From positions 1,364,001-1,428,000 of the forward strand of contig NZ_CP136624.1 in the NCBI RefSeq assembly GCF_032917945.1: a stretch of 64,000 bases of DNA. The letters are read 5' to 3'. The position numbers and the translations under genes were made by a program. How positions within the stretch are numbered: position 1 is the first letter of the stretch; every line of letters begins with the position of its first letter. This DNA comes from Bradyrhizobium sp. sBnM-33. GTDB taxonomy: Bacteria; Pseudomonadota; Alphaproteobacteria; Rhizobiales; Xanthobacteraceae. Under the pieces are notes generated by a model. That model searched no databases and was not told the origin of the DNA. It was given only the letters and a program-made list of their open reading frames with translations. Shown here in pieces: positions 10,577 through 58,470 of the stretch.

Positions 10577-10688
10577 CGCAGGGAAGACCGGGTGCGCGCT
10601 GCACCCGCGGTCTCGCGTGCGATTTGCGCAAACAAAAGTGCACACGAGCATACAGGTACAGCGGGAGCATCCCGGCCTTCCCTGCGCA
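10577..10688. repeat. Inverted repeat, Bradyrhizobium intergenic type
   Basis: Arm GCGCAGGGAAGACCGGG at 10577-10592 is mirrored by CCCGGCCTTCCCTGCGC at 10671-10687, with one mismatch and about 80 bases of spacer containing another small palindrome. From memory the same arms recur in Bradyrhizobium and Rhodopseudomonas intergenic spaces. It marks the last core-like sequence before the integrase. Confidence 0.6.
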
Positions 10689-10830: not shown

Positions 10831-12093
10831 ATGGCACGCAACGTTCGCTACTCCAGCCTTGAGACGCGCACGGCGCGGCTGAAGCTCGCCGTTCGGCGGA
10901 AGCCGTACAGCGGTCCGTCGCTCGCGCGCGGCGTCTCGCTGATGTACAGGCGCAACGTGACGAGCGGCTCTTGGGTGGTCAAGGCCAGTGACGGCCACGG
11001 AGCATACTGGACAAAGGTCGTCGGAATCGCCGACGACTACGACGACGCCAACGGCAAGAATGTGCTGGACTTCTTTCAAGCGCAGGGCGTGGCGAAACAA
11101 CTCGCGCGCGGCGGCGAGGACGGCAGCGACGACACCGCACCGATTACGGTCGATGGAGCGCTCAAGGACTACAGGCGTGATCTCGAAGCGCGCGGAGCGA
11201 ATGCGTACAACGCTCAATCACCGCGCGCGCATTTGACACCGGTGCTACTGGCTAAACCAGTGCAACTGCTTAACGCGCACGAGCTGAAAAAATGGCGCGA
11301 CGGTCTTCTCGGCAAGGTCGCACCGGCCACAGTCAATCGCATTTGCAGATGCCTATGCGCCGCCTTGGAATTGGCGCGACAGCACGACGAGCGCATTCAG
11401 AACCGGCAAGCATGGGAAATTGGGCTGGCTGCTCTGCCGGACGCTCAAGAGGCGCGCAACGTCATCTTGTCGGACGATAAGGTTCGCGAATTCGTCAGCG
11501 CCTGCTATGGCCTTGAACATCAGTTTGGGCTGCTGGTTGATACGTTGGCAATAACTGGCGCACGACCAAGCCAAGCGGTTCGGCTCCGCGTCGAGGACCT
11601 GCACTATCATCCCGTCCGACCGAAACTGATGATGCCCAAGTCCGGCAAAGGCGGCGGTAGAAATCGCGCCGCTAAGAAGAACGAGCGGTACAGCGTGCCC
11701 ATCACCGTGCAGCTCGCGGCGAAGCTGAAGGCAGCAGTCAAAGGCCGTGCATACGATGCACCTCTATTGCTACAAAGCGATGGCAGACCTTGGGACCGCA
11801 ACCCTGGGCAGAACTATCACCGGCAGGTTGACAAGGCCGTCGCTGCCACCGGCCTCGATCCAGCCGTTGTAACGATATACGCGCTACGGCATTCGAGCAT
11901 CGTGCGAATGCTGCTGCAGAACGTTCCAATCAGGTTGGTTGCATCGCTTCATAATACAAGCGTCATAATGATTGAACGAACCTACTCGAGGTTTATCACC
12001 GAACACACTGACGATATCTCGCGCAAGGCGCTGCTGCAGCATGAGGAGCCGCAAGCAGGCAACGCCGACAACATTATTGCCTTGGCGAGATGA
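10831..12093 (+). CDS. Tyrosine recombinase / phage-type integrase
   Basis: A 420-residue protein. ATG 10831 is preferred; 14 more codons are open upstream. An N-terminal Arg/Lys-rich arm-binding region is followed by a SAM-like core-binding domain and a catalytic domain. Box I Arg is in TGARPSQAVRL (about R245), box II reads YALRHS (R353; the usual first His is Tyr), and the nucleophile Tyr is in ERTYSRFI (about Y385). It should catalyse site-specific integration and excision. It is the first gene of the element and points into it. Nothing in the sequence identifies its attachment site with certainty. Confidence 0.9.
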   Translation: MARNVRYSSLETRTARLKLAVRRKPYSGPSLARGVSLMYRRNVTSGSWVVKASDGHGAYWTKVVGIADDYDDANGKNVLDFFQAQGVAKQLARGGEDGSDDTAPITVDGALKDYRRDLEARGANAYNAQSPRAHLTPVLLAKPVQLLNAHELKKWRDGLLGKVAPATVNRICRCLCAALELARQHDERIQNRQAWEIGLAALPDAQEARNVILSDDKVREFVSACYGLEHQFGLLVDTLAITGARPSQAVRLRVEDLHYHPVRPKLMMPKSGKGGGRNRAAKKNERYSVPITVQLAAKLKAAVKGRAYDAPLLLQSDGRPWDRNPGQNYHRQVDKAVAATGLDPAVVTIYALRHSSIVRMLLQNVPIRLVASLHNTSVIMIERTYSRFITEHTDDISRKALLQHEEPQAGNADNIIALAR

Positions 12094-12316
12094 AGCCACA
12101 ACGAACTTACGAGCGGGTCGTGATCCAGCGCCATCGTCAGTCTGAAGATTTCTGCTTCTGACTGGAGCAGATGGCAACGCCCTGCAAGTCTCTGAGTTGT
12201 TGGATCAGATTTGAAGAGTCGGTGCTAGTATGCCCAAACTCAGCAACAGATCGGGAGGTCGGCGTCGATCACCCGGAGTATCGCCGGTCCGCGACTCGCA
12301 AGTCCGTTCCGTTCAC

Positions 12317-13003
12317 ATGACTAGCTTCATGACATTTACCGCTCTCTCTAACGCGCAATGGGAGGCCATTCGTTCGACCCGCACCAACTGGCCGAACGGA
12401 ATCGATTACCGGCGTGAGATCGAGCGGATCGGACAAGACTATTGGGATGCGCAAGCTGCCAGGGAGATTTGGGTCAAGCGATTGCAGGGAAAACAACCGG
12501 CAAAGCAGCGGGAGAAAATCCACAAGGCGTGGATATCATCGCAACAGCTGCGGACCGCTCTGGCAGCACTGGGTAATGACGGCCTGCTCGATGATGATTT
12601 CCCCTATCCCGATCTCGAGTCACCGGAGAATAGGCTTGAAGCGTGGCTCTCTGAGTATGATCTTTGGGTTCGGCCATTTGCCGGCAAGAGCAACCCGATT
12701 CAGGCGGAACTAGAATGGCGCTTGCTGGCCCTTTGGAAGAAGGCCGGCGGGAAGCTGGTTTTTACGAGGGAGCAGGAACCTGGGATGCGGCGACCGACCA
12801 AGCCTGTTCGCAGGCTACTGCGCGAGCCAGGCACTCCCTACGGACCCTTGATAGATTTTCTCACGCACACCCTCCACGCCATTCTTGGTAGGTCTCTCAC
12901 TCCATCCGGGATTGCCGGAATCATCGACCGTCATCGAGGGCGACGACCACCACACGATCCCTTCCTGATGTACGCGATGCGAGTCCGAATCATCGGGTCG
13001 TGA
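12317..13003 (+). CDS. Hypothetical protein of the integrative element
   Basis: Not recognised. From ATG 12317 it has 228 residues (an upstream ATG at 12230 would give 257 with a basic, low-complexity extension). It is rich in Trp and charged residues, with segments RTNWPNGIDYRREIERIGQDYWD and LIDFLTHTLHAILGRSLTPSG, predicted helical and without signal or membrane segments. The C-terminal part ends in a basic stretch IIDRHRGRRPP. It is codirectional with the integrase, about 220 bases after it. Confidence 0.55.
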   Translation: MTSFMTFTALSNAQWEAIRSTRTNWPNGIDYRREIERIGQDYWDAQAAREIWVKRLQGKQPAKQREKIHKAWISSQQLRTALAALGNDGLLDDDFPYPDLESPENRLEAWLSEYDLWVRPFAGKSNPIQAELEWRLLALWKKAGGKLVFTREQEPGMRRPTKPVRRLLREPGTPYGPLIDFLTHTLHAILGRSLTPSGIAGIIDRHRGRRPPHDPFLMYAMRVRIIGS

Positions 13004-13198
13004 TTCGCCCGAGTCATCCGGCTACACGAGCAATTAACGAGCAAAATTCAAATCTGCCGCAAGACATTGAATTGCAATGATGTTTCGCCACTTCCTTTAT
13101 CGATCCTGCACTGAGCATCGATCGTAAACTTATCTGAGCAGATCAACTGCGCTTCATTGCCTCCTACGCGCAACCATACAGTAGGAGCAGATAACACG

Positions 13199-13441
13199 AT
13201 GGCCCGCCCTGAGATTACTGGCCGTAAGATAGCATCGCTGGACGCCGCGGAAGCGGACGCCTTTTCGGTCAAAGAATTTTGTCGCCGCAACGGCATCTCT
13301 GTGCAGCTGTTCTACAAACTCCGCAACCAGATGCCCCGCACGTTCAACGTCGGGACGCGCGTGCTGATTTCCAAGGAAGCGGCTGCTGCATGGCGTCGCG
13401 AGCGCGAGCAGGCGGCGGAGGCAGCTAACGGCATCGCCTAG
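13199..13441 (+). CDS. Small helix-turn-helix (excisionase/MerR-like) DNA-binding protein
   Basis: An 80-residue protein. ATG 13199 follows TAGGAG at about 13181-13186. The core FSVKEFCRRNGISVQLFYKLRNQMPRTF looks like the winged helix of excisionases and phage regulators, in which a sequence-reading helix (SVQLFYKL) is followed by a wing (GTRVLIS), then an Ala/Glu-rich tail. It could direct excision or act as a replication/transcription regulator of the element. Function is inferred from fold-like pattern and position only. Confidence 0.7.
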   Translation: MARPEITGRKIASLDAAEADAFSVKEFCRRNGISVQLFYKLRNQMPRTFNVGTRVLISKEAAAAWRREREQAAEAANGIA

Positions 13442-13509
13442 TTAGCGCGGAAAGAAACGGCGGCGCGCCGGCCGCTCTCTCCAATTTCTCTCTCACGGAA
13501 TCTCTTAGA

Positions 13510-14168
13510 ATGTTTGTCAGCAATACCAGCGCGCTCACGGGCGCGCCAACCTGTAACGATTTCCCCGAGCAGGAAACCGCCGGACGGGTTTTCCATCCAC
13601 TGCCGGCGCACAGCTACGATCTGATCGTTATCGATCCGCCGTGGCCGTTCGCAACATGGAGTGCGGCTGGGGAAGGCAAGTCCGCATCGAAGCATTATCG
13701 CGTGATGACGCTTCCGACATCAAGGCGTTGCCGGTCCGTGATTTGTTGAAGGACAACGCTGTTGTTCTCCTCTGGACGACCGGCGCGATGCTTTCGCACG
13801 GGGTGGCCGTTATGGAGGCGTGGGGCATCACCTTCAAAACCGAGCTTGCCTGGCGCAAGGTCACGCGCAACGGCAAAGTGCGCATGGGCTGCGGCTTCTG
13901 GGCGCGCAGCATGCATGAGCCTATCCTGCTGGGCACGGTCGGCAAGCCGAGCAAATTCACGCTGCCGTCTTGCTTCGACGGAATCGCGCGCGAGCACAGC
14001 CGCAAACCGGATGAATTCTACCGCATGATCACGGACCGGACGCCGAACCTGCGGCGTGCCGACGTGTTCGCTCGCGAAAAGCGCAAAGGCTGGGACGTTT
14101 GGGGTGACGAGGTCGAGAAATTCTCGCCGGCTGCCAGTGAGCAGCCACCCCTTAGCTTCACCTCTTAA
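13510..14168 (+). pseudogene. MT-A70 family adenine DNA methyltransferase, frameshifted
   Basis: Two overlapping frames make one MT-A70 protein. The first (13510 to about 13710) supplies the catalytic DPPW motif in YDLIVIDPPWPFATW (residues 42-45). The second (about 13711 to 14168) supplies DIKALPVRDLLKDNAVVLLWTT, AWRKVTRNGKVRMGCGFWARSMHE and REHSRKPDEFYRMI. The switch lies near GACGCTTCCGACATC at 13705-13719, where one extra base would restore a 219-residue protein. MT-A70 enzymes methylate adenine N6 at sites such as GANTC-like or phage-specific motifs. It is either a sequencing indel or a real lesion, since both halves keep conserved residues. Confidence 0.85.
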
Positions 14169-14181
14169 AAGGAGACTAGGT

Positions 14182-14385
14182 ATGAAGAAACCTAACGGAA
14201 ACCGTCGCGAGTATTCGATTCATTCACTCTTCGGCGTGCTCTCCATAGCAGAGGGCTTGCTCTGCCCGAGCTGCAATCGCGCTATTCAGAGCTACGACTT
14301 GGAGTCGATCTATCGGTCTGCTTTTCAGATCAATTGTGGCGGTTGCCACCGTACGCTGCTCGCTTACGAGGAGCCGCGGAAGTGA
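14182..14385 (+). CDS. Small zinc-ribbon protein
   Basis: A 67-residue protein. ATG 14182 follows AAAGGAG, 9 bases upstream. Two CxxC pairs, CPSC (about residue 33) and CGGC (about 55), are spaced like a zinc ribbon. The rest is short basic N-terminal sequence. Its stop overlaps the GTG start of the sliding clamp gene (GTGA), so the two are translationally coupled. Its partner or nucleic-acid target is unknown, but coupling to the clamp suggests a replication or transcription accessory role. Confidence 0.7.
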   Translation: MKKPNGNRREYSIHSLFGVLSIAEGLLCPSCNRAIQSYDLESIYRSAFQINCGGCHRTLLAYEEPRK

Positions 14386-15488
14386 AACTCTCGGCTCCAG
14401 CTTGCGTGCTTTCCGATGCGATCTCGCTTGCGAGCGTGATCAAGCGGGGCGGCAATAGCCCGTGCTTCGCGCATCTCGCCACGACTGGGGACGCCGTCTC
14501 TATCACGTGCACCGAGAATACAGTGGGCACGATCGCGACCAGCGTCTCCCCAACGATCCAAGAACCGGGCGAGATTGCCGTTTCCATAGCTCGTCTTGCC
14601 ACTCTTCTTTCCAGCTTCACGGCCGACGCGATCGTCGACATCGAAGGGACCACCGGCGCAGTTAACGTGGTCTCTGGCACTAGCCGTTTACGATTGCCGG
14701 CTGTTTCGGTTGTCGAATCGCCAGCGGCAATTACCATCGATCAAGAGGTTGGACGTGTCGAGATCAGCAGCGCCGACCTTCTCCAACTCCTGGAGCCACT
14801 CGCAGTAGCGGACCGCACCAGGTTGCAGCTAACAGGCGTTTTTCTGCACGGCGTCGGCCATCAGCTCGTCGCGGTTTCCACGGACGGAATCAGGTTGATC
14901 CGTACGAGCGTTGCCGCCTCCACGTTCTCGGAGGACCGTACTCTCATTGTGCCTACCGAGGTTGGCATTGTGGTGCGCCGGCTGTTGCAAAAGGCTGGTG
15001 CATCTCGCGTTACGCTTCGGCGATCCCGTAGCCTGATTGCCTTTGAAGCTCCGTCTTTCAGCTTCACCGCTCGCTTGATCGATTCCAGTTTCCCGGCTTA
15101 TGAAGGCTTGATTCCACCGCCCGCACCAAACTCAGTTTTCTGCAACCGTGGCGACTTGCTCGCAGCACTGTCGCGGCTCGGCGCCGCCGCTTCGAGCAAT
15201 GACACCGCGCTGGTTGCACTATCCTGGGGAGACGGCCGATGCCTGGACCTTCACCTGGCACGACGCCCGCTTGATGGTGCCGATGTCATTGCGGCCGAAG
15301 TGCATGGCAGTGCGGAGGCTGCGCTTTCGCTTCCGCAATTCGCAGCGTTGCTAAAGGAATTTAGTGACGAGCACGTCCTGCTCGAAACTGCAAACGAATT
15401 GCCGGTTGTGATCTGTGGTGCGAGCGAGAAGCTGGCGCTCATCGTCCGCTCGAAATGGAACTTCGGTAGTCGCGGGAGAAGGACATGA
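14382..15488 (+). CDS. DNA polymerase III beta-clamp-like protein (DnaN paralogue)
   Basis: A 368-residue protein from the GTG at 14382. The length and three-repeat layout match bacterial beta clamps. Diagnostic pieces are VSTDGIRL (the TDGHRLA motif of domain 2), RTLIVPTEVGIVVRRLL, and ARLIDSSFPAYEGLIP (the RLIEGxFPDY motif). The C-terminus ends LALIVRSKW rather than the usual PMR, so the partner-binding pocket may differ. It would be a processivity ring on DNA for the element's own polymerase or a hijacker of the host one. Host DnaN is not in the window. It stands just upstream of the primase gene. Confidence 0.85.
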   Translation: MKLSAPACVLSDAISLASVIKRGGNSPCFAHLATTGDAVSITCTENTVGTIATSVSPTIQEPGEIAVSIARLATLLSSFTADAIVDIEGTTGAVNVVSGTSRLRLPAVSVVESPAAITIDQEVGRVEISSADLLQLLEPLAVADRTRLQLTGVFLHGVGHQLVAVSTDGIRLIRTSVAASTFSEDRTLIVPTEVGIVVRRLLQKAGASRVTLRRSRSLIAFEAPSFSFTARLIDSSFPAYEGLIPPPAPNSVFCNRGDLLAALSRLGAAASSNDTALVALSWGDGRCLDLHLARRPLDGADVIAAEVHGSAEAALSLPQFAALLKEFSDEHVLLETANELPVVICGASEKLALIVRSKWNFGSRGRRT

Positions 15489-15573
15489 GGGTCCATGTCC
15501 GCGGATCCGCACCAAATTCCAAGATGCACTGTGCAGCGCCCGTATCAAGCTCGAGCGGTCGGGAGCATTGCTG

Positions 15574-16176
15574 ATGGATCAGGGTGCTGACCAACACAAC
15601 AAGAACCAAGTGTGTCCGCAGATCACGCTGATCACCAAGCGCGGTACGCCTGCGCTGATGTCGAAAAGCATTTCGCTGGACGAGGCGGGTAAGCTGCACA
15701 GCGATGCGTCCGAATGCCGGATGGTGCACGGCACGGCAGCTCGCGCGTTCGCGGCAACAGCGAGCGACCTCGTTCTTATCATCGCGAGCTGTGGTTCAGA
15801 TCAGGCCATCGCGCTTGGTCGCTTAAAAGATGAGCTCCCTGACCGTGTGGAGATCACTGTACCGAGCAGACTTGACCGTCATCCTGGTGCCATTACTCGC
15901 TCCCGTAAGTTCATCGATTATCGGCCGGGAAGTCCTGCCTGGGTGCTCATCGATTTCGATGCAAAAGCAATGCCTGAACAGGTGGCTGCCCGGATCGAAG
16001 TCGTAGGTGGCATGTGGAACGCCTTGTTGACGGTGGCGCCAGAACTGGCGGCTGTTGCGCGAGTTTCCCGGGCGAGCACCACGGCGGGTCTTTCCCGCAG
16101 CGACACCCTTGAGCCAATTCCTGGCTCCAATGGTATGCACCACTACGGGATGGTAGAGACGTCGAACGGTTCTTGA
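15574..16176 (+). CDS. AEP primase-polymerase, N-terminal piece
   Basis: A 200-residue piece from ATG 15574 that ends where the next frame begins. It contains the acidic motif LIDFD (D127, D129) and the motif GSNGMHHY (H189) of archaeo-eukaryotic primases. The third motif (LIDRMVG) lies in the following frame, so both pieces are one protein: DVERFLKDLHERCW continues after a frame change just before 16158. The loss is one base modulo three, possibly more. The intact protein would have about 1,100 residues. It would synthesise primers or DNA for element replication. Confidence 0.75.
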   Translation: MDQGADQHNKNQVCPQITLITKRGTPALMSKSISLDEAGKLHSDASECRMVHGTAARAFAATASDLVLIIASCGSDQAIALGRLKDELPDRVEITVPSRLDRHPGAITRSRKFIDYRPGSPAWVLIDFDAKAMPEQVAARIEVVGGMWNALLTVAPELAAVARVSRASTTAGLSRSDTLEPIPGSNGMHHYGMVETSNGS

Positions 16177-18872
16177 AGGACCTGCACGAGCGCTGCTGGT
16201 TGCACGGATTCGGCTGGCACACGATCGGCGCAGCAGGTCAGTTGCTCGAACGGTCATTGATCGATCGGATGGTCGGCTACGGCGAACGCCTGTGCTTTGA
16301 AGGCGCGCCCTTGATTCTTCCGCCGCTGGCGCAGGATCCGGTGAAGCGCGTACCCGAAATGTTCGAGGGCGAAGCGATTCAGTCGGATCGGGTTGTACCC
16401 CGCCTGACCGAGTTTGAGCGCCATCGCGTCAACGAGGCCAAACGCGCCAGTGCCGAGGCGCTGGGCAAACCTGCAGCAGCTGTTCGCAGTGAACATGACC
16501 GCAAGCTCGCCGAGCGAATCGCAGCCGAGTCGGGCAAGCCTCTGTTGACGGCGCTGCGCCTCGTGGCTGCGCGACATCGCGGGGTGCTCTTTCCCGACGT
16601 CGAGCTCGAGTTTGATCACCTGGGCGTCGTGACGATCGGGGCCGTGCTGGCTGATCCTGAGCGGTTCGTCGGCGAGACGCTCGCTGACCCCATGGAAGGC
16701 GTCGGTTACGGACGCTGTAAGGCCATGGTGATGAAAGGCGAAGACGACGCCCTGCTGATTCATAGCTTCGCGCACGGCCGGGGCGTCTACCTTCTTCGGC
16801 ACGACCTGAAATCTGGCAAGGCTGCCTTTGCACAAGCTCCAGCCGACGCCATGGTAGAACATGCCCTAGCGATCTTGGCCCAAGCCGAGCTTGAGGAGGA
16901 CGAGCTCGCAGATTTTGTCGCGCATGTTTCCAAATCTGCGAACGTTGGCGTTCGCGTTTTGACGAGGCGGATCAAGAAGGACCGTGCGCAACGCGAATCC
17001 GAGAAGCATAAAGCATCCATGGGATCGAGTACCGATGGCCGCATTATTCGGCGGCGGCCCGAGGCCGACGGCGAGTTGCTGCCGACGATTACATTCGTTG
17101 ATGAGCTGCTTGCCGCGGACGGGAGCGAAGAGCCGCCGATGCGGAATGCTTCCGGCGCGTTCGTACAGGTGGAGGTGAAGCAGCCCTGGGCGCTGCATCT
17201 GCTGACGGCCGAGAGTGCCAATGCGATTGGCGATGACACCGATCTCATGAAGGCGCCGGCAGAGCCGGTCCTCGCTGAATTGACGCCGATCGGAGTTGAA
17301 CTACTCCTTGAACGCTACGTCCGATGGGAAGTCGTGACGCGGGATGCATATTACTTCGGCGCTTTGCAGGCGCCCTTCATCAATGCGCTGATCGAGTTTC
17401 CCGGGAGTGCGCTGCCGGTCGCAAGGGCGATCAATACGGCGCCGTTGGTCACTATGTCAGGTCGAATCATCGATGGGGTTGGACTGGACCGGCCCACTGG
17501 GCTGGTCCACCGCATCGATCCCGTTCTTCGCTCGTGTGTTCCGGCCGGTGCCCCGACAAACGATGAGGTCAAATCTGCTCTCAAGTTTCTGTTGGACGAC
17601 TGGCTGGTCGACGTCGCGCTCGATCCGGTCGGCAAGTGCATTGCCGTCCTGCTCGCGCTCACTCTGCTGCAGCGAGCCTTGCTGCCTGAACGCCCTGCGT
17701 TTTTTGTGACAGCGGGGCAGCGGGGCGGGGGGAAGACGACCTTGGTCCACATGATCCTGACGGCGGTCTTGGGGCGACGTGCTGCGGCCGCAGGTTGGTC
17801 AGAAAATGTCGAGGAGCGAAAGAAGGCCCTGTTCTCCTACTTGCGCCAGAATGTAGCGGCGCTGGTCTGGGACAACATCACCAGGGGCGGCAACATCACG
17901 TGTCCGCATATCGAGGCTGCGTTGACGGCCTCAGAGATTTCCGATCGAGTCTTGGGAGTGTCACGGGTGGAGACGGTCCCCTCGTCCACGATCCAGATCT
18001 TCACCGGCAACTCGATTGCGCCGCGCGGGGATATGGCGAGCCGATCGTTCATCCTGCCGCTGGATGTGAATCGGCCAGACCCTGAGAATCGCGCTTTCAC
18101 GCATGCCGACCCGCTGGCCTGGACGCAGGCAAACAGGGCGAAGATCCTACGGTCGCTCTACACGATCCTGGTCGGCGGGGCGTTGTCGCGCCCAAGAGGC
18201 CAGGTTGCAAAAACCCGGTTCAAAACATGGTGGGGGTTGATCGGGTGGCCTGTAGAATATGCGGCCGGACTGCTCGAGATCGAGGTGGACTGCACTCAGC
18301 TCCTCAGGGCCGGCGAGGCAAGCGAGGAAGAAGCGAGTGCCGCATCCCGTGCTCTTACCGTCCTGCGAGAATGCTGGGGTGAAGACAGCTTCACCACGCG
18401 ACTGGTGGTGATGAAGCTAGCTGAATTGGGCTCGATGATGGAGAGCAAGGTCGCGCGTGCGGAGGCGCTCTCCGATGCCTTGGGCGAACTGATCGGAAAG
18501 CCGCTCGAGAATCCGACTGCCCGCAGTGTTGGTAAACTCTTCCAGAAATATCTTACGAACCGGCCGGTCTGGCTGGCGGACGGTGATGTCGTGGCGGTGC
18601 TTCGCAAGATTCCGGGCCACGATGCCAACGAATACCGGGTCGAGATATCCAATCCGAGGCAGTCCTCCACGTCAGGTCCTCGGGGTTTGGCCCCTGACGC
18701 GCCTAACCGGAGCGGCGAGACCAATGCGGCCGCCGGGGCAACAGCAAGGTCGACGGGGAAAGCCGGGAAAGTGGGAAAAGACGGGAATGTTTCGGCCGCC
18801 GCTGGCCAGGATAAAACAATTTTTTCGGATGAGCCTGCCGGTGAATGCGAGGGTTGGAGGGCTCGGATATGA
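16173..18872 (+). CDS. Primase-polymerase/helicase, main C-terminal piece
   Basis: The frame is open from just upstream of a TTG at 16173 and gives about 899 residues. The first 40 complete the AEP domain (LLERSLIDRMVG). A long middle region follows, then a P-loop ATPase with Walker A GQRGGGKTT (about residues 514-522), VWDNITRGGNI as a likely Walker B/sensor region, and FTGNSIAPRGDMASRSF, the pattern of primase-associated SF3-like helicases. The C-terminal 90 residues are low complexity. Its stop overlaps the next start (ATGA). Whether the native start is translated depends on the frame lesion upstream. Confidence 0.8.
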   Translation: MKDLHERCWLHGFGWHTIGAAGQLLERSLIDRMVGYGERLCFEGAPLILPPLAQDPVKRVPEMFEGEAIQSDRVVPRLTEFERHRVNEAKRASAEALGKPAAAVRSEHDRKLAERIAAESGKPLLTALRLVAARHRGVLFPDVELEFDHLGVVTIGAVLADPERFVGETLADPMEGVGYGRCKAMVMKGEDDALLIHSFAHGRGVYLLRHDLKSGKAAFAQAPADAMVEHALAILAQAELEEDELADFVAHVSKSANVGVRVLTRRIKKDRAQRESEKHKASMGSSTDGRIIRRRPEADGELLPTITFVDELLAADGSEEPPMRNASGAFVQVEVKQPWALHLLTAESANAIGDDTDLMKAPAEPVLAELTPIGVELLLERYVRWEVVTRDAYYFGALQAPFINALIEFPGSALPVARAINTAPLVTMSGRIIDGVGLDRPTGLVHRIDPVLRSCVPAGAPTNDEVKSALKFLLDDWLVDVALDPVGKCIAVLLALTLLQRALLPERPAFFVTAGQRGGGKTTLVHMILTAVLGRRAAAAGWSENVEERKKALFSYLRQNVAALVWDNITRGGNITCPHIEAALTASEISDRVLGVSRVETVPSSTIQIFTGNSIAPRGDMASRSFILPLDVNRPDPENRAFTHADPLAWTQANRAKILRSLYTILVGGALSRPRGQVAKTRFKTWWGLIGWPVEYAAGLLEIEVDCTQLLRAGEASEEEASAASRALTVLRECWGEDSFTTRLVVMKLAELGSMMESKVARAEALSDALGELIGKPLENPTARSVGKLFQKYLTNRPVWLADGDVVAVLRKIPGHDANEYRVEISNPRQSSTSGPRGLAPDAPNRSGETNAAAGATARSTGKAGKVGKDGNVSAAAGQDKTIFSDEPAGECEGWRARI

Positions 18873-19408
18873 ATGCCGCCCAGATAATTGAAGAGATCAC
18901 TTCGTTCGGGATCCAGATCCGGACTGAGGGCAACGACCTGCTGATCAAGGCGGAGGCAAAGCCTCCCGCTTCTGTTCTGAAACTCCTGTCCAACTACAAA
19001 GCTGATATTCTCACATTGCTACAGTCTGGCAGTGGGAGGCTCGATCACGCACTTCTCCGGCTAGAGTGTGCGTGCCCCGACTATGTCGACGAGGGCCGCT
19101 GGCAGTGGTGCATCAGCGACGCCCGACGCTTCCCCCGAAGCTGGGGCAGTCAGGCCGTGGCTCTTGGATGGACAGCCAAGGACCTCTTTGGGTTGCACGA
19201 TCCGCCAGCCAATCCGCATCCGTCCTATAGCCGGCTTTCCCGATACGACCAGACAGGTCTGCTCTGGCTACTAGAGGGTCGTCCCGTTGTTGCACTTACG
19301 GCGACGACTGCGGCAATCGAATCTCTCGGAGGGCCGTCCATCAAATACCGCAAGTACCACAAGCCAGCCCTTGGGTCTGTTGGCGACTCGCTGGAAGATT
19401 TCGTGTGA
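18869..19408 (+). CDS. TubC_N-domain-like protein
   Basis: A 179-residue protein translationally coupled to the primase gene. Residues 3-50 (AAQIIEEITSFGIQIRTEG, then ALLKAEAK-like and LLSNYKADILTLL) match the small TubC N-terminal docking fold, often found beside primase-helicases in mobile elements. The C-terminal part has Cys/Trp-rich CACPDYVDEGRWQWC and GWTAKDLFGLH, seen in phage and plasmid proteins of similar context. It may bridge the helicase to a partner. The role is inferred. Confidence 0.7.
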   Translation: MNAAQIIEEITSFGIQIRTEGNDLLIKAEAKPPASVLKLLSNYKADILTLLQSGSGRLDHALLRLECACPDYVDEGRWQWCISDARRFPRSWGSQAVALGWTAKDLFGLHDPPANPHPSYSRLSRYDQTGLLWLLEGRPVVALTATTAAIESLGGPSIKYRKYHKPALGSVGDSLEDFV

Positions 19409-19483
19409 TCACAAATATGCCATTCGGACGACAGAGGTCGTGCGTTGGACCAGGATCTAATCTCTAAGAAAGGGAGCAGTAAG

Positions 19484-19894
19484 ATGAGTGTAGACGTCAT
19501 CGGAAACAGCAGCGGATGGTGGCGCGTGGCGCTGTACTGGTGGTTTACGCTTGCCGATTACTCCCATCACATCGCGCCAAGCGTTACGAGTGCGTGCCGC
19601 CACTGGCGCTCAAGCGACGAGGATGGACTGAACGGCGATCAGGCGCGCGAGCTCGCCGCCGAATTGCAGCGCTCAATAGATGATGGCAGGATTGATGAGT
19701 ATGCACGCCAACTCTTTGTTCGGTTGTACAACGGCAAAAGAATGAGGTGCCTTGTCGAATACGAAGATGACAGCAGCGATGCTCCCTTTCCGGTTTGTAG
19801 GCCAGATGAGCGTCGCTTCGTCAACGAATTCATCGGCGAGGTTCAACGTTTCATTGAGTTCCTGTTGTCCTGCGAGGGATTCCGAATCCAATGA
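19484..19894 (+). CDS. Hypothetical element protein
   Basis: A 136-residue protein. ATG 19484 follows AAGGGAG. Not recognised. It has a Trp-rich start (SSGWWRVALYWWFTLADY), a central helix LAAELQRSIDDGRIDEYARQL and an acidic C-terminal half. The pattern WWRVALYWWFT is too polar around it to be a clear membrane helix. It lies between the TubC_N-like gene and the terminase-like gene. Confidence 0.5.
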   Translation: MSVDVIGNSSGWWRVALYWWFTLADYSHHIAPSVTSACRHWRSSDEDGLNGDQARELAAELQRSIDDGRIDEYARQLFVRLYNGKRMRCLVEYEDDSSDAPFPVCRPDERRFVNEFIGEVQRFIEFLLSCEGFRIQ

Positions 19895-20008
19895 TAAGTC
19901 ACGTGCTTTCAGAGAATTTGGGTCCCTGTTGGAGCGGAGTAATCGCCGGTAGCGCGACCGCACGAGCGTCTCTCAGGGTTGTATTGGAAACGAGGAGTCA
20001 GAAGTGAA

Positions 20009-20563
20009 ATGGCAACAATAGCTCAAGCAGCGGCTCACCTTTGCTGCTCGCGAGCCCAATTTGACCAGTACCTGGCTGAGGGCGTGGTCACGCGGCAGCC
20101 TAGTGGCAAATACGATCTCGATGAGGTGCGCCGCGAGGCATTTGCCCACCTGCGCTCTGTCGCCGCTGGTCGGGGTGGTGCCGCCGGTGACAAGCTCACG
20201 GCGGAGCGCGCTGCTTTAACGGCTGCGAAACGTCGGCGCGAGGAACGCCAGGATGAACTCGAATCCGGTCAGGTTGTGCGACTCGCGGTCGTCCGGCGCT
20301 ACCTTGAACAGATGCTCGTGGGGATGCGTAATCGATTGCTCAACTTGCCCGGCGAGACCGCCTACATGCTCGCAATGCGTCCGCAGGCCGAATGCTTCGA
20401 GATTCTGGACGATAGTGTTCGCGCCGCCCTCGAGGAGATTGCCGATCCCGCCGGCGCTGCCGCACGCGCCGCTGCTGCCGGCGTCGAGAGCAAGAATGGT
20501 GAACCCAATAGGAGAGACGACAATGATAGCGAAAAAGAGGATGCCACAGACGCTGCTGAGTGA
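20009..20563 (+). CDS. Phage terminase small subunit-like protein (Nu1 type)
   Basis: A 184-residue protein from ATG 20009. The N-terminal HTH (IAQAAAHLCCSRAQFDQYLAEG, wing KYDLDEVRREAFAHLR) and the following GRGG...LTAERAALTAAKRRREE, SGQVVRLAVVRRYLEQML, MRNRLLNLPGETA follow the order seen in lambda Nu1-type small terminases, which bind the packaging site and recruit the large subunit. No large terminase, portal or capsid gene follows. It may redirect a helper phage's packaging machinery, as in satellites, or be a leftover. Confidence 0.75.
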   Translation: MATIAQAAAHLCCSRAQFDQYLAEGVVTRQPSGKYDLDEVRREAFAHLRSVAAGRGGAAGDKLTAERAALTAAKRRREERQDELESGQVVRLAVVRRYLEQMLVGMRNRLLNLPGETAYMLAMRPQAECFEILDDSVRAALEEIADPAGAAARAAAAGVESKNGEPNRRDDNDSEKEDATDAAE

Positions 20564-20705
20564 CGAGGTCCCCGGCTTTCGGATTGGCCCGACTGGCGAA
20601 GTAGAAATTTTGACCGAGGCCGAGGTCGAGGCACTGGTCTGGCCCGCCGTCCGCGAAGCGATGCATAGAGCGGGCTGGCCGAGGCCAAAACGGACGCTGC
20701 ACTGA
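20523..20705 (+). CDS. Small hypothetical protein overlapping terminase 3' end
   Basis: 60 residues, starting at ATG 20523 inside the last 41 bases of the upstream gene. It has an acidic central helix EILTEAEVEALVWPAVREAMHRAGW and a basic end PRPKRTLH. No family was recognised. A weak GGAGAGA lies 8-14 bases upstream. The overlap and composition suggest a coupled accessory gene. Confidence 0.4.
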   Translation: MIAKKRMPQTLLSDEVPGFRIGPTGEVEILTEAEVEALVWPAVREAMHRAGWPRPKRTLH

Positions 20706-21045: not shown

Positions 21046-21453
21046 ATGCCTACACGTAAGTTCAAGACCCCCGCGACCGGTTCGAGTGAGCTAACTTCGG
21101 CTGGCATTCCTTGGTCCGAGGTGCCTGAATCCCCGTGTCCCTATACCGAATGGCTGGATGGGCGCCACGGCCCGGCGAAGGACGCGCTGCCGTCCGTTGA
21201 TCAGTTTCCTATCCCCGAAGCACTTTTAGCTCTTCCTATTCTGCATGCTGACCGTCCACGCGGATCAAAGCCAATGGCCGATGTTCATGGCGCAAGGCAA
21301 CGACTGGCTGGTTGCCGCCCTGGAGCTTGGTTGGTCAGTCCGTTCACCGGCTGGCGGTGGGCCAAATGGCCTCATGGAGAAGTTGGCTGGCTTTCGGCCG
21401 ATACGGTGCTGCCTGACGCCCTCCGCGTGCGATCACGCAACGATGTTCAGTAG
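21046..21453 (+). CDS. Hypothetical protein, possibly degraded
   Basis: 135 residues from ATG 21046, which has an excellent GAAGGAGG 8 bases upstream. The N-terminal half looks genuine (WSEVPESPCPYTEWLDG). After about 21230 the alternative frame (DQSQWPMFMAQGNDWLVAALELGWS) looks more protein-like than this one, so a frame lesion is likely. No family was recognised. Confidence 0.4.
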   Translation: MPTRKFKTPATGSSELTSAGIPWSEVPESPCPYTEWLDGRHGPAKDALPSVDQFPIPEALLALPILHADRPRGSKPMADVHGARQRLAGCRPGAWLVSPFTGWRWAKWPHGEVGWLSADTVLPDALRVRSRNDVQ

Positions 21454-21473: not shown

Positions 21474-21779
21474 ATGCCCAATTCTGACAGCCGGGAACTG
21501 ACACGCAGAAGCATCTTAGTTGGTGCGACCGCTTCATTGATTTGCAGGCCAGCCATTGTGCGGGCCGCAAGCTTGATGCCGATCCAGCAACTGATTCTCT
21601 CGACCGTTTCAATCAATCCAGAAAAGCCCTCGTTGGGCTTTATCGGCACCTGGCGGATTCACTTCATGAGGCAAGCCTTGAGGAGAGGCTGGGAAGGCCG
21701 TGACTCCCAGACGTTCGGTGGAACTTCTGAAGCTGCCGCTCGATGCTATGTCATGTGGATGACCGCACAGGGATTGTGA
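21474..21779 (+). CDS. Small protein with Tat-type leader
   Basis: 101 residues. The N-terminus RELTRRSILVGATASLICRPAIVRA is a twin-arginine leader, followed by SLMPI and a short Trp/Arg-rich domain GFIGTWRIHFMRQALRRGW. I recall small phage-region proteins of rhizobia with this leader, but no function is known. An ATG is chosen; a GTG precedes it directly. Confidence 0.5.
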   Translation: MPNSDSRELTRRSILVGATASLICRPAIVRAASLMPIQQLILSTVSINPEKPSLGFIGTWRIHFMRQALRRGWEGRDSQTFGGTSEAAARCYVMWMTAQGL

Positions 21780-22483: not shown

Positions 22484-22844
22484 GATTGGGAATTCCTGAA
22501 ACTGACCGTATCTTTCGTTCGAATCGCTCTCGCTCCGCCATCGACCAGGGCAGTCTGCCTTCGAGCTCGGTCGACCAGCCCCAAAATCCCAACAAACTGA
22601 GACCTTTTGGGTGACGGACCGTACTAGAGATTACCGAAGAGGCGGCAATTTGCGGCTGGAGATGACATTTTTCTCCAAAGCTTCGTACTTCGTCATTTCA
22701 GTACAGTTCTGAAAACCAAAGGGCGAGCGCAATAACTTGCGCTGCAGTTTGCTCAGGGTTCGAATCCTTCTCCGACGAGCAAGAGTAACAGCCTCTCTAA
22801 CTTTCAGCAGCCCCGACCGGGAATGTCCGCTATCGGCGGGATAG
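22484..22844. other. Non-coding stretch with a second degenerate T-arm-like sequence
   Basis: About 360 bases without a gene. At about 22755-22778 the sequence CAGGGTTCGAATCCTTCTCCG looks like a T arm and acceptor strand of another tRNA, but the T stem is mispaired and nothing else folds. It may be a relic of a second integration event. The rest shows no coding potential. Confidence 0.35.
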
Positions 22845-23054
22845 TGTTGAAAAAGTCTTTTTGGGGGTCACGAACGGAAATTTCTAGAGCCGCTGATGCG
22901 TTTCGCGCGCGGCGATATGAGGGGACCACATCGTTTCACACAAAAACGACCACAGAGCATCGTATCGGCGCTACGGAGTATTGCTGTGGCGGAGTCGGCT
23001 AAAAATCAAATTTTGCGAGATTTCGGCGTCGTTCGATTTTCGACTTTTGCAACA
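22845..23054. mobile_element. 210-bp inverted-repeat element, copy a
   Basis: Terminal repeats TGTTGAAAAAGTC (one mismatch) and GACTTTTGCAACA; the symmetry extends outward to GATAG/CTATC. GGCGG flanks both ends, a plausible 5-bp target duplication. The interior shares AATTTCTAGAGCCGC and TGAGGGGACCACATCG with the other copies, and no protein is encoded. It behaves as a non-autonomous MITE. Confidence 0.75.
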
Positions 23055-23281
23055 CTATCGGCGGAAGCGCGGAAAACATTTGCTCGTATTGAGATCACTC
23101 AGTTTGACCCGAAGCCGAACCATCGCAACAAACACGGGATGTCCGATATGCGGCGCGTCAAACTAGTAGAAACATTAACCTACGTTAAACCGCTGCGGCG
23201 GCGACAGTGCTTGCGACTTCATTACGCTTCTCGGCGGCGCGGCGGCCGCATGGCCGCTAGCGGCACGGGCCTCGCGCATGT

Positions 23282-26095
23282 CTATTCGATCAGGATCAGA
23301 CCGGGAGGGAGTGAATCGTCGTATAGACTGGCCCAGTCGGATCGTCCGATCGGAACGAACCCTTTGATTTTTGCGGTCTGCAGCGCAGGGACGCCGGATT
23401 TCTCCAGCTTGCTGGCAATCAAACCGCGCAAAGGCATGGGCAAATCCAAGCTCCGATCGTCGACGACGCGCGCGGCCCGGAGGAACAGAATCTGCAGGTC
23501 GAGCAACTCCGGCGTAGTCCAATCAAAGCGCTGGAAAGCCTGATACGCGTGCTCGACGAGATCGGGCGAGACGACAGTCTCCGGCCCTGCGTAGAGCGGA
23601 GTTCGGTTGAGCAGGAGCCCGAGCGCCGCAAGATAGGGAGCGCAGTGCCGCTTGGCCCGTGCAAGCGTCACCGCGATGTCGCAAAAGCAACGCACCAGTT
23701 CCGCCTTGGTGTCGTGGTGGATCAGTTCCAGGGATCCAGCCAGGCGCACGAGTTCGTCGGACGCCCTGCCGCTGCGGATCCTGTCGATCTCTCCGGCCAT
23801 AAGCCTGGTCTGGCGTTCGCGCGTGAGCCCGCCCGCCACCCGGCGCCAGAGGATGTATTCCTGGCTCTTGATGCGCCGACCGGGAAAACACGGGCCATCA
23901 TGGTGCAGCCGCCACAGGGCATCGATACGAAGGTCGTCCCGGACAACGCCGAAGCCCGGGCGCAGCAGGAATCCAGCCATGATGAGCCATGCCTCTTCGT
24001 GGTCCGCCGAACGTCGTCTGTCGTCCCGCCGCTCCTCGAGCGCAGGCCAAAGGGCGCGCAGCAGGGGCCCGTTCCATTCACTTCTGGCAGACGCGAGGAT
24101 GCGCTCCATACCCTTGAGGATCGTGGCAGCAGTAATCTTGTTCTTTTTGCTGTTATTGGCAGGCTGGGTGAACACGATCCCGATCTGCCTGCGTGCCGTT
24201 TCCAGCGCGTCCGCTGAAGCGTTCGGTTCAATCGGAGCGTTTGCCTCCCGCGCCCGCCCGACACCGGGCGCGCCCGCGACGCCTTGGACATGCTCGCGCA
24301 TGTTGAATTCCAGCGGCCAGGACTGCTGGACGGCGGGGTCGGCGCTGACGCACGAGATGTGGAGCAGCCCCAGTGCGTTCATCCGCGCCGTCAGACCGAC
24401 GGGCAACATCCCGCCCGGTTCCGGACCGGATAGCTCAGCCGTCCTGACGATGGTCTGGAGCGGGGGCAACGGGTGAAATTCGCCTTCGGACCAGGAAACG
24501 ATGTCTCCGGCCTGGCTGACGCTCTTCCGGGTTGAGGAATAAGCCTGGAAGCGCACTAGCTGATCGGTGCGGAGCTTAAGCCCAAGATCAGCGATCTCAA
24601 AAAGCTGCGACGGCCCTGCACCCTGAGGAAGAACGCATATGAGGGGCGGACGCACTGTCTGGCGATCCGTTGCCTGTATCCCCTCCACTTCGAGAAAGAT
24701 CGCAGCGGCGGCGCCAGCGGCGATGCGACCCGAACGGTGGTGGAGGAGGGCACCAAATCGCGCGGCTCCGCGCGCCACCGCCAGATCCGGCTCCTCGTTC
24801 TCCAGAACCTGCGGTACGAAGCCGTCCTGCCAGCCTCCGATCTGCTCGCGGAGTCTTTGGCGCAGGAGCGGCGGTCGGACGGATCCGCCGTTGAACAGGA
24901 CGGCATCAATGCGCGGGCGATCGTTGAGAAATTCGGCAAGGTGTCGGGTTATCGCGCTATCGGGAGGATAAGGAAGCCCCCATTCCCTCAGTGCCGCGTG
25001 CGTCAGGTACGGCCGCGCCGCCGCGTCGCAGAAGGGAAAAAATCCGTCCAGCAATAGGCTCTCGATTTCCGCCCGCATCACCGTCGCCGCCTGCGAGCCG
25101 CCGACCATCCCCGACCCGCGACCGGCCAGTGCAACAACGAACCGCTCATCCGGCGGCCCCGTAGCGGCCAGCGCGTGCTCTTTCAGATGACGGCAGGCGG
25201 CGACGAGCTGATCCCATTGCGGGCCGGAAAGCCGGCCGCCCGCCCCGGCAAGCCGCGGCTCCAGGAAATGGGCGACGGCAAGGTCGAGATTGTCGCCGCC
25301 GAGCAGCGTATGCTCGCTCACCGCGACACGCCTGATGTCAGGGTCCGGCGTTTGCTCGTTCAGGCGAACTTCAAAAATGCTGAAATCCGAGGTGCCGCCG
25401 CCGATATCGATGACCAACACGTGTCGCAGCCCGGCATCGCCATTGTCGGGCCGCTGCCATAATTCGCGCGCTGGGTCGTGGCTTTCCAGCCAGCAATAAA
25501 ACGCAGCCTGCGGCTCTTCGAGCAGTCGCACATCGCCGGGGAAGCCCGCTTCCTCGGCGGCGGTAATCGTCAGCCGCTGCGCCGCCGCATCGAAGGAAGC
25601 CGGGACGGTAACCGTGATGTCCTGATCATCGAACGCAAACCCGGCCTGGGCAAACCGGCTGTTCCAGATCCCCCGCAGATAGTTCAGAATCAGTGCCGAG
25701 GAGCGTACCGGTGAGATTTTCTGCTCACGTGCCAGAACCGTCGATCCCCATGGCAGAAAAGGTGCCGACCGGTCGGCGGCGTGATGGCAAAGCCACGACT
25801 TCGCGGAATGGACGACCCGTCCGGGCGCTTCGCTTGCCTTCATGCGTGCAAAAAGTCCGACGATCCATTGCCCGGCTCCGACCTCCTCACCGCGCAAGTG
25901 TGCTGCGACCGCTTCCTCTGGCAGGTACAGGAAAGAAGGTAGCGTTGGCTTCTCGGTCAGACGCGCCAGGCCTTCCCATTGCGGGACGAGAAGGACCTCT
26001 GGCGTCCCCTCGCCGACCAGTGGCGCGAATGCGAGTGCGGAGTTGGTCGTGCCGAGATCAATACCAATGGCGAAGCGGGCGCGGTCTTTCGTCAA
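23282..26095 (-). CDS. Hsp70-family protein with long C-terminal region (DUF3731 type)
   Basis: A 937-residue protein. The TTG start at 26095 is supported by GGAGGT 5 bases upstream. The N-terminal 500 residues are an actin-like Hsp70 ATPase: phosphate 1 FAIGIDLGTTNSALAF, phosphate 2 HVLVIDIGGGTSDFSIFE, connect motif TLLGGDNLDLAVA, adenosine motif VLFNGGSVRPPLL. The canonical substrate domain and lid are replaced by a large helical region (about 560-937), which from memory is the DUF3731 type. Probably an ATP-driven chaperone with a dedicated client. It follows a second Hsp70 gene by 24 bases. Confidence 0.88.
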   Translation of the reverse strand: MTKDRARFAIGIDLGTTNSALAFAPLVGEGTPEVLLVPQWEGLARLTEKPTLPSFLYLPEEAVAAHLRGEEVGAGQWIVGLFARMKASEAPGRVVHSAKSWLCHHAADRSAPFLPWGSTVLAREQKISPVRSSALILNYLRGIWNSRFAQAGFAFDDQDITVTVPASFDAAAQRLTITAAEEAGFPGDVRLLEEPQAAFYCWLESHDPARELWQRPDNGDAGLRHVLVIDIGGGTSDFSIFEVRLNEQTPDPDIRRVAVSEHTLLGGDNLDLAVAHFLEPRLAGAGGRLSGPQWDQLVAACRHLKEHALAATGPPDERFVVALAGRGSGMVGGSQAATVMRAEIESLLLDGFFPFCDAAARPYLTHAALREWGLPYPPDSAITRHLAEFLNDRPRIDAVLFNGGSVRPPLLRQRLREQIGGWQDGFVPQVLENEEPDLAVARGAARFGALLHHRSGRIAAGAAAAIFLEVEGIQATDRQTVRPPLICVLPQGAGPSQLFEIADLGLKLRTDQLVRFQAYSSTRKSVSQAGDIVSWSEGEFHPLPPLQTIVRTAELSGPEPGGMLPVGLTARMNALGLLHISCVSADPAVQQSWPLEFNMREHVQGVAGAPGVGRAREANAPIEPNASADALETARRQIGIVFTQPANNSKKNKITAATILKGMERILASARSEWNGPLLRALWPALEERRDDRRRSADHEEAWLIMAGFLLRPGFGVVRDDLRIDALWRLHHDGPCFPGRRIKSQEYILWRRVAGGLTRERQTRLMAGEIDRIRSGRASDELVRLAGSLELIHHDTKAELVRCFCDIAVTLARAKRHCAPYLAALGLLLNRTPLYAGPETVVSPDLVEHAYQAFQRFDWTTPELLDLQILFLRAARVVDDRSLDLPMPLRGLIASKLEKSGVPALQTAKIKGFVPIGRSDWASLYDDSLPPGLILIE

Positions 26096-26119
26096 GAATT
26101 ACCTCCAGAGGCGGGGCCC

Positions 26120-27952: not shown

Positions 27953-28072
27953 GAGGGGAGGTTTGTCCTGGTTGTCGTGCTGTCAATTCGCGTCAATAGC
28001 CGCGCGTGATGGAAAGCACCGGTTGTACGTGATCCGACTCGGGCGTCCGGCAGCCGGCCGATTCGAGCCCGC

Positions 28073-28723: not shown

Positions 28724-28911
28724 CAGCGTTGATTAACGCACGAAGAATATAGGAAATCGACGGTTGTGGAAACCTAACCGGGTCCGCGCCCGCTAATTGC
28801 GCAACCGGCACAGCGCCGCTCGGAACTTCCTAGGTCAGTCGGATAGTCGGAGCGTCCTTGGCCAAACAGGCGACCTGCTCCGAAATCTAATTTCCGCTCT
28901 ACCCCCGATAC

Positions 28912-42338: not shown

Positions 42339-42546
42339 TTGCAAAAGTCCCAAAAGGACGCGCGGCTAATTTTCCGCGAAAGAACGAAATAAACGACAAT
42401 CGCCGGTCAATGTAGCCTCAGGCCCGTTGTCAGAATCGCCGGTGAGTTTAGCGCCCGACAGCGTGGGTCCCCCACGTTATTATTCGATCGTCGCGCCTAT
42501 GGCTCTAAGAATTTGAGTCACATGCCGAAAAAAGACTTTTGCAACA
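42337..42546. mobile_element. 210-bp inverted-repeat element, copy c (split by IS copy 1)
   Basis: TGTTGCAAAAGTC at 42337 and GACTTTTGCAACA at 42534-42546. Its outer left end, GATACTGTT, lies 1.37 kb away at 40957-40965 on the other side of the IS. Right flank GGCAC and left flank TTGGCA (40951-40956) share GGCA, a plausible target duplication inside a GGCAC repeat. The interior resembles copy b in reverse. Confidence 0.8.
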
Positions 42547-49880: not shown

Positions 49881-49904
49881 AAATCGACACTCAGGTGGCT
49901 CACT

Positions 49905-49926
49905 TCAGCTATTGGCAGATTGTGTT
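49905..49926 (+). repeat. Left remnant of GGCAC repeat and 210-bp element d
   Basis: CTATTGGCA (repeat) joined to GATTGTGTT (outer end of the 210-bp element), then the IS begins. It lies 25 bases after the stop of the winged-helix/TPR gene. Confidence 0.65.
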
Positions 49927-58398: not shown

Positions 58399-58470
58399 GG
58401 GCATAGCCGGACATCGGCCCACAATTGTGCTATATGAACGTTCAATTTCCCCGAGCCCCGGGGGTGCATC

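What the first reader, a model, noticed from the sequence alone, without database searches (positions are those of the whole stretch)
10831..20563. Integrative element with its own clamp, primase-helicase and small terminase but no virion genes
In about 10 kb one strand carries integrase, excisionase-like protein, MT-A70 methylase, zinc ribbon, DnaN-like clamp, AEP primase-polymerase/helicase, TubC_N-like protein and a Nu1-like terminase small subunit. Several neighbours are coupled (GTGA at 14382, ATGA at 18869), so this is a working order, not random debris. Encoding a sliding clamp next to a primase-polymerase is unusual for so small an element. With a small terminase and no capsid, portal or large terminase, it fits a phage satellite that replicates alone and borrows packaging. 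Domains are seen in the sequence; the satellite idea is inference.
Basis: partly seen in the sequence, partly recalled or inferred. Interest (0 to 1): 0.85.

Follow-up and report, generated by a model that had tools for sequence, protein, structure and literature searches.

The report
Satellite-like Bradyrhizobium element with own clamp
A piece of mobile DNA in a soil bacterium carries an integrase, its own DNA-copying genes (including a sliding clamp) and a virus-packaging gene but no virus shell genes, so it may spread by borrowing virus particles, although the copy in this genome looks broken.

Summary
The genes are there, mostly as described, but the primase-helicase and the MT-A70 methylase are each split between two reading frames, while relatives have them in one. 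This copy is probably dead, not "a working order". The limits were also wrong: the left end is 10689/10690, and a right arm resumes only beyond the window (equivalent 69.3-76.93 kb), after about 47 kb of other DNA.

The integrase belongs to a Bradyrhizobium family (43 of 257 genomes). In 15 of 17 loci examined it sits at one core in a dispersed repeat. Eight loci have both ends (17.5-20.9 kb); I found no convincing virion gene in them. Their replication genes differ, TerS occurs in 2 of 8, and the three checked carry defence-like cargo. The clamp-primase-TubC_N-like-TerS block also stands, with the primase intact, in a 9.7 kb tRNA-Ser-anchored element of a Nitrobacteraceae genome. The clamp is a true beta clamp, 27% identical to the host's own.

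Best reading: a decayed member of a PICI-like satellite lineage with interchangeable replication modules. Helper and packaging are inference; a non-phage integrative element is the main rival. Three searches listed no paper on a clamp-bearing satellite.

The parts
10678..10688 (+). attL core TTCCCTGCGCA inside a dispersed Bradyrhizobium repeat; left junction 10689/10690
   Evidence: Matching host DNA ends at exactly 10689 in 7 of 9 relatives fetched; the same core stands beside the integrase in relatives
10831..12093 (+). tyrosine integrase (420 aa)
   Evidence: phrog_1 E 3e-21; 43 of 257 genus genomes at E<=1e-60, this one included
12230..13003 (+). 257-aa protein of unknown function, shared with relatives L146, L147, L154, L157
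   Evidence: tblastn; no Pfam or PHROG match
13199..13441 (+). small HTH / excisionase-like protein
   Evidence: phrog_66 E 0.012; tblastn matches in 16 of 17 integrase loci
13510..14168 (+). MT-A70 DNA methylase, split between two frames (13510-13749 and 13641-14168)
   Evidence: Pfam MT-A70 75.8 bits; one DPPW-bearing frame in 5 of 6 relatives found
14182..14385 (+). small protein with two CxxC pairs (zinc-ribbon-like), start-stop overlap with the clamp
   Evidence: sequence; no family above cut-off
14382..15488 (+). beta sliding clamp (DnaN-like, 368 aa)
   Evidence: Pfam and PHROG; profile 2-355 matches 2-360 of a solved clamp; AF2 pLDDT 87.8, Foldseek E 4.4e-28 to the P. aeruginosa clamp
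15571..16176 (+). AEP primase N-terminal part (motifs I and II), cut off by a frame change
   Evidence: 85% identical to G169; phrog_16593 E 8.8e-12
16173..18872 (+). remaining primase (motif III) and helicase, in another frame
   Evidence: 88% identical over 899 aa to the 1091-aa single-frame gene of G169
18869..19408 (+). TubC_N-like protein (179 aa), ATGA overlap with the helicase
   Evidence: weak Pfam TubC_N 14.5 bits; 81% identical in G169, same place
19484..19894 (+). 136-aa protein of unknown function
   Evidence: ORF; partial match in L143; no Pfam match
20009..20563 (+). small terminase subunit (Nu1-like TerS)
   Evidence: phrog_57 E 6.5e-24; 83% identical in G169, 73% in G414
20523..20705 (+). 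60-aa conserved protein behind TerS
   Evidence: 50% G169, 52% G414, 42% L140, each time behind TerS
21046..21453 (+). 135-aa element protein of unknown function
   Evidence: 81% identical in L146
21474..21779 (+). 101-aa element protein of unknown function
   Evidence: 48% identical in L146, directly behind the 135-aa gene

Best explanation
It is the left arm of a decayed, satellite-like integrative element of Bradyrhizobium. Shown by sequence: the integrase family inserts at a fixed core (TTCCCTGCGCA) in a dispersed genomic repeat; complete relatives are 17.5-20.9 kb with no convincing virion gene and with interchangeable replication modules; the module here (clamp, AEP primase-helicase, TubC_N-like protein, TerS) also forms a separate bounded 9.7 kb element elsewhere. 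Inferred: in intact relatives integrase and excisionase release a circle, the AEP primase-helicase starts and drives replication, the element's own clamp makes the copying polymerase processive, and TerS steers a helper phage's packaging motor to element DNA; defence-like cargo protects host and element. In this copy the primase active site is divided between two frames and about 47 kb of other DNA lies inside the element, so it is probably no longer able to replicate by itself.
For: Order clamp-primase-TubC_N-TerS-60-aa protein conserved in G169, bounded by tRNA-Ser and a 29-of-37-base copy of its 3' end (score 42 against at most 26 in 60 shuffles), 9.7 kb, with its own integrase (Pfam) and the primase in one frame. 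Integrase family at the same core in 15 of 17 loci, 8 with both ends. No named capsid, portal, TerL, tail or lysis family at E<=1e-5 in 121 of 143 ORFs of the 8 complete elements, rescanned with every matched family shown; TerS in 2. The scan does find TerL and tail genes where they exist (L096). Five contigs besides this genome's appear to hold both clamp and primase by equal contig length, against 0.2 on average for shifted lists. Pattern scans of IMG/VR found no relative and no phage record covers 80% of the primase. Primase-helicase model resembles NrS-1 PrimPol and the SaPI5 primase-helicase, a satellite replicase. Defence-like cargo in L140, L150 and L159. The far right arm (69.3-76.9 kb) matches six loci of the integrase family and none of 26 other 20-kb loci.
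Against: No helper phage, packaging signal or particle was shown. TerS occurs in only 2 of 8 complete relatives and 3 of 17 loci of the integrase family. No capsid-remodelling gene, master repressor or replication origin was identified. Three right-arm proteins and the 135- and 101-aa proteins of this copy gave no defence match (0 of 5). A distant relative (L096) carries TerL, tape-measure and baseplate genes, so the primase family is not confined to virion-less elements. One protein of L159 has a weak 'major head protein' score (E 0.0082). The right-arm reading is not clean: a stretch of G370 (L173) outside the 26-locus comparison also matches 71290-71528, and L141 and L142 have their right-arm matches about 35-38 kb from the integrase.
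Confidence: 0.5

Rival explanations
1. A non-phage integrative element (defence-type island or integrated plasmid-like replicon) that replicates on its own or is passively mobilised; TerS is a relic or a DNA-binding protein with another role.
For: TerS in only 2 of 8 complete relatives; replication modules differ widely while the integrase is constant; defence-like cargo; no relative found in IMG/VR.
Against: TerS keeps its place behind the replicase, with the 60-aa protein, in window, G169 and G414, and the 60-aa protein also follows TerS in L140; size and layout resemble satellites (PMC6092414).
Confidence: 0.35
2. An ordinary prophage remnant that has lost its capsid and tail genes.
For: TerS and AEP primases occur in phages; L096 has this primase family beside TerL, tape-measure and baseplate genes; the window copy itself is decayed.
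Against: G169 is a bounded 9.7 kb unit of the same order without room for virion genes; the 8 relatives with both ends have a narrow size range and no convincing virion gene; no phage record covers 80% of the primase.
Confidence: 0.12
3. The whole 66 kb from 10690 to window-equivalent 76934 is one large genomic island moved by this integrase, not an interrupted small element. (This concerns size and can hold together with any of the other readings.)
For: A perfect core stands at the left end and a degenerate one at the right; L141 and L142 have right-arm matches about 35-38 kb from the integrase, and L142 also matches two stretches of the middle, so longer members may exist.
Against: All 8 relatives with both ends found are 17.5-20.9 kb, though no right end was found for 9 of 17; the middle 46 kb has 6 family hits, no more than the 6 in unrelated loci, while the right arm has 12 against 0; part of the middle lies in G370 without either arm beside it.
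Confidence: 0.2

Closest known systems
Phage-inducible chromosomal islands (PICI, SaPI family; PMC6092414: introduction and passages read)
   Same: Integrase at one end, own primase-helicase, terS in some members, no virion genes, interference or defence-type cargo, size of 15-20 kb order; the primase-helicase model resembles the SaPI5 primase-helicase.
   Different: No master repressor or divergent regulatory pair found; att is a dispersed repeat; it encodes a beta sliding clamp; induction and packaging unknown.
AEP primases of mobile elements, NrS-1 phage PrimPol type (PMC5862659: five passages read)
   Same: AEP domain with D-x-D, H and D motifs fused to a D5-like helicase; best PDB fold matches are NrS-1 C-terminal region structures.
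   Different: No sequence match among solved structures; the word clamp does not occur in the main text of that paper.
P4-like satellites (recalled)
   Same: Integrase plus AlpA/Vis-like regulator and a primase-helicase.
   Different: P4 hallmark proteins (Psu, Sid, delta; recalled) were not searched for one by one; none was named in the PHROG scans.

Membership tests
PICI | unique specific attachment sites never occupied by prophages | tested here: inconclusive
   A specific site was shown for 15 of 17 loci; occupation by prophages was not tested
PICI | no phage structural or lytic genes | tested here: met
   No named virion or lysis family at E<=1e-5 in 121 of 143 ORFs (115 aa or more) of 8 complete elements; the other 22 were scanned with only the top 25 families shown; one weak head-protein score, E 0.0082
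PICI | size about 15 kb | tested here: inconclusive
   17.5-20.9 kb in 8 relatives, 9.7 kb in G169; this copy 66 kb between its ends
PICI | primase/rep replication module | tested here: met
   AEP primase-helicase family; split in this copy, one frame in G169
PICI | divergent regulatory pair with master repressor (Gram-positive) or AlpA activator (Gram-negative) | tested here: inconclusive
   Only a weak excisionase/HTH match here, phrog_66 E 0.012; a Pfam AlpA protein stands beside the block in G414; no repressor identified
PICI | terS in some members | tested here: met
   phrog_57 E 6.5e-24; 2 of 8 complete relatives
PICI | helper-phage-dependent induction and packaging | not testable with these tools
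   needs wet-lab work
P4-like satellite | psu, sid, delta hallmark genes | not tested
   families not searched one by one
beta sliding clamp (DnaN) | beta-clamp fold over the full length | tested here: met
   Profile 2-355 on 2-360 of 6ams; model pLDDT 87.8, TM 0.87 to 6ams_D
AEP primase superfamily | motifs I hhhDhD/E, II (H) and III (D) | tested here: met
   D126, D128, H188, D233 invariant in 44 homologues, assigned to the motifs by me; in the window motif III lies in the other frame

The most novel reading that the evidence does not exclude
A lineage of phage satellites that swaps complete replication machines between a fixed integrase and a fixed cargo zone, one of which is a private replisome: AEP primase-helicase plus the element's own beta clamp. 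It uses a multi-copy genomic repeat as landing site, so that one genome may offer many attachment sites.
Probability: 0.4. Interest if true: 0.75.

Novelty: new variant of a known kind. Interest (0 to 1): 0.58.

Why it matters
Satellites are generally taken to lean on host or helper for processive DNA synthesis (recalled); one that brings its own sliding clamp would be unusual and testable. The att core and the integrase give a simple handle for finding these elements in the many Bradyrhizobium genomes, and three of them, where checked, carry anti-phage-type genes. Two searches for phage satellites in Bradyrhizobium or Rhizobiales returned no paper.

Tried and rejected
Led nowhere: the search for related loci with the helicase, the clamp and, in viral contigs, the primase alignment found no loci; a plasmid search gave one partial match. 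Of the 8 loci I looked at the context of 4; L092, L094 and L095 are short contigs and L098 (25%) was not examined, nor was G763. Rejected: (a) that the conserved DNA at 22517-22839, with a 33-base match in G169, is an origin or end of the element: it is a dispersed repeat, in tandem in G313 among genes that by eye belong to no element. (b) That the clamp is a host dnaN duplicate: 27% identity over 206 residues. (c) That L146:14812-15261 is a large terminase fragment, as it looked by eye: PHROG did not support it. (d) That L144 holds a whole clamp: only the C-terminal domain is there, in a frame shared with a methylase-like stretch. Own error: TerS and the 135-aa gene were translated in a wrong frame; redone, and the TerS identities quoted are from there.
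Full report
What is there. The window lies in a 9.18 Mb single-contig genome of the genus Bradyrhizobium: a same-genus handle, G466, has a 7,033-base contig with the primase at the same place as a record of that length titled Bradyrhizobium genosp. SA-3. On the + strand from 10831 lie integrase, a 257-aa protein, a small HTH protein, MT-A70 methylase, a small CxxC protein, a DnaN-like clamp, AEP primase, helicase, a TubC_N-like protein, a 136-aa protein, a Nu1-like TerS and a 60-aa protein. Two further element genes follow, 21046-21453 and 21474-21779; both recur side by side in L146.

The copy is damaged. In G169 the primase-helicase is one 1091-aa frame. Here it is two frames, 15571-16176 and 16173-18872, 85% and 88% identical to the G169 gene. 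Residues D126, D128, H188 and D233, which I assign to the three AEP motifs, are invariant in 44 homologues; the change of frame falls between motif II and motif III. The MT-A70 gene is split too, while 5 of 6 relatives found have one frame with DPPW. Intact copies therefore exist elsewhere; this one is probably inactive.

Ends. I fetched 9 relatives with the host DNA left of the element: in 7 the match runs to exactly 10689, in G313 to 10628, in G370 to 10328; beyond 10689 the 7 continue into a repeat that the window lacks at this place. In this genome that continuation appears 66 kb further on, at window-equivalent 76,935, and about 6 kb after it comes the gene block that follows in relatives. 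The far right arm, 69.3-76.9 kb, has 12 hits in six loci of the integrase family and none in 26 other 20-kb loci; the middle has 6 hits in the family and 6 in the other loci. Against this reading, a stretch of G370 (L173), not among the 26, matches 71290-71528. Part of the middle, 23260-28859, is present in G370, where neither arm's DNA was found in the 31 kb to its left. I read this as an element of about 19.5 kb (10690 to about 22.5 kb plus the right arm) interrupted by about 47 kb; a genuinely long island is a live rival, since L141 and L142 have right-arm matches about 35-38 kb from their integrase.

The integrase family. 43 of 257 Bradyrhizobium genomes, this one included, have a match at E<=1e-60. 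I took 20 loci; 3 were dropped because their contigs ended early, leaving 17. In 15 of 17 the integrase stands beside the core TTCCCTGCGCA or its counterpart in the reverse reading of the same repeat; the exceptions are L146 and L158. Eight (L140, L145, L147, L148, L149, L150, L157, L159) also have the other end: 17,668, 18,418, 18,400, 20,892, 20,580, 18,844, 17,456 and 18,342 bases. For the other 9 no right end was found: eight were read to 40 kb, L158 to 20 kb.

Virion genes. From the 8 complete elements I took 143 mechanical ORFs of at least 115 aa (the longest where they overlap; the integrase end and ORFs across a locus border left out). All were scanned against PHROGs at E<=1e-8, but only 25 of 43 and 25 of 30 matched families could be shown. 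I rescanned 121 of them at E<=1e-5 with all 17 and 24 families shown: TerS in two elements (L140, L149), primases, helicases, a ligase family, enzymes and unnamed families, no named capsid, portal, TerL, tail or lysis family. The 22 left out were replication, methylase, transposase and defence genes and a few small ORFs. Genes under 115 aa were not covered. Against this: one protein of L159 has a weak major-head-protein score, E 0.0082. The scan can see virion genes: in L096, a distant primase relative (43%), it found TerL, tape-measure and baseplate-hub proteins; no capsid was seen there.

Replication modules differ between these elements: a DNA polymerase (phrog_17) in L140, primase-type proteins in L145 and L159, Toprim plus D5_N in L147 and a Toprim protein in L150, the clamp block in the window. 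Cargo near the right end, where I checked it (L140, L150, L159), includes AbiTii, TIR/ThsB-like, FRG-domain, HNH/type IV and McrB-like proteins. Five proteins of the window element, three of them in the right arm, gave no PADLOC match.

The clamp block elsewhere. G169 (Nitrobacteraceae bacterium AZCC 2146 by the name of P0074, whose contig has the same length) has a different tyrosine integrase (Pfam), a 228-aa protein, clamp (70%), primase-helicase, TubC_N-like (81%), a stretch unlike the window's, TerS (83%) and the 60-aa protein (50%). A tRNA-Ser stands at the integrase end and a 29-of-37 copy of its 3' end at the other, score 42 against at most 26 in 60 shuffles: a 9.7 kb unit. G414 has an AlpA protein (Pfam 33 bits), primase, TerS (73%) and the 60-aa protein, but no clamp match and no integrase that I recognised. 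Among 7 other contexts with a full-length primase relative (G169, G414, G466/L091, G420, L093, L096, L097) an integrase stands beside it in 5, TerS in 2, TerL/tail genes in 1; several of these contigs are short. Prevalence is low: 4 of 265 genus genomes at E<=1e-60 and 2 of 397 in the order sample at E<=1e-50, this genome counted in both. In a family sample 22 of 296 match at E<=0.001, but besides this genome only G169 over the whole length and G176 over the N-terminal part; the rest match parts of the helicase region. The protein database gave 571 primase relatives (120 listed) and 73 clamp relatives, each among about 8,000 scored candidates, most of those listed with jgi, ena or lgn as the source. 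Five contig lengths besides this genome's own coincide between the two lists, against 0.2 on average (at most 2) for shifted lists, so clamp and primase probably share those contigs. Pattern scans of IMG/VR found no relative; 56 phage records match part of the primase, none 80% of it.

Structure. The clamp profile matches solved beta clamps over nearly the full length; the model has pLDDT 87.8 and TM 0.87 to the P. aeruginosa clamp. The second clamp-like gene of this genome, at 1945-2577 and presumably the host dnaN, is only 27% identical. The primase-helicase model (pLDDT 79.4) has its best PDB matches in NrS-1, ASFV PrimPol and the SaPI5 primase-helicase, with modest TM-scores, about 0.2-0.4 of target length; by sequence no solved structure matches.

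Mechanism. Shown: site-specific integration of the family, conserved order, a complete clamp, an AEP/D5-type replicase, TerS, no convincing virion genes. Inferred: excision, autonomous replication with the element's own clamp as processivity factor, TerS-directed packaging by a helper. Not shown: any helper.

Literature. PICI features are taken from PMC6092414 (introduction in full and passages). Searches with 'sliding clamp': one search listed 11 papers, one search listed 12 of 53, one; by title and abstract start none is on a clamp-bearing satellite, and in the one (PMC11874982, passages) the word stands in a reference only. Searches for phage satellite with Bradyrhizobium and integrase, and PICI with Rhizobiales, gave none. 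PMC5862659 was read in five passages. The library holds open-licence papers only.

Noticed in passing
window 22517-22839 and 22840-23063: Two dispersed Bradyrhizobium repeats side by side; the first occurs in tandem in G313 (L063:13111-13596), the second has many copies in the genus.
   Followed up: partly
L096:7516-19668: A compact stretch in a Proteobacteria MAG with integrase, AlpA/excisionase-like protein, the same primase family, TerL, tape-measure and baseplate-hub genes but no capsid or portal seen.
   Followed up: partly
L140:11783-18479: Dense defence-like cargo before attR: AbiTii, TIR (ThsB/PDC-S66-like), EVE-HNH and FRG (PDC-S15) proteins.
   Followed up: partly
L140:9249-10193, and L144, L145, L149: A recurring coiled-coil-looking protein, recognised by eye, in elements of this integrase family; no PHROG match for the L140 copy.
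   Followed up: no
L144:4841-5953: One frame joins a methylase-like stretch with a clamp C-terminal domain only (140.8 bits): decay or a fusion.
   Followed up: no
G420 (L106:12190-13152, L107:2503-3756): A 42%-identical primase between two tyrosine recombinase genes (one clear, one just under the Pfam cut-off), with a toxin-antitoxin-like pair by eye and no TerS match.
   Followed up: no
window 23282-64000 and L090 to 69300: About 46 kb inside the element holds two Hsp70-like genes, transporters, cyclases and several IS110-type transposases by eye; two near-identical IS copies at 41203-42399 and 49817-51220. Two stretches (48714-49880, 58463-59486) also match the relative L142.
   Followed up: no
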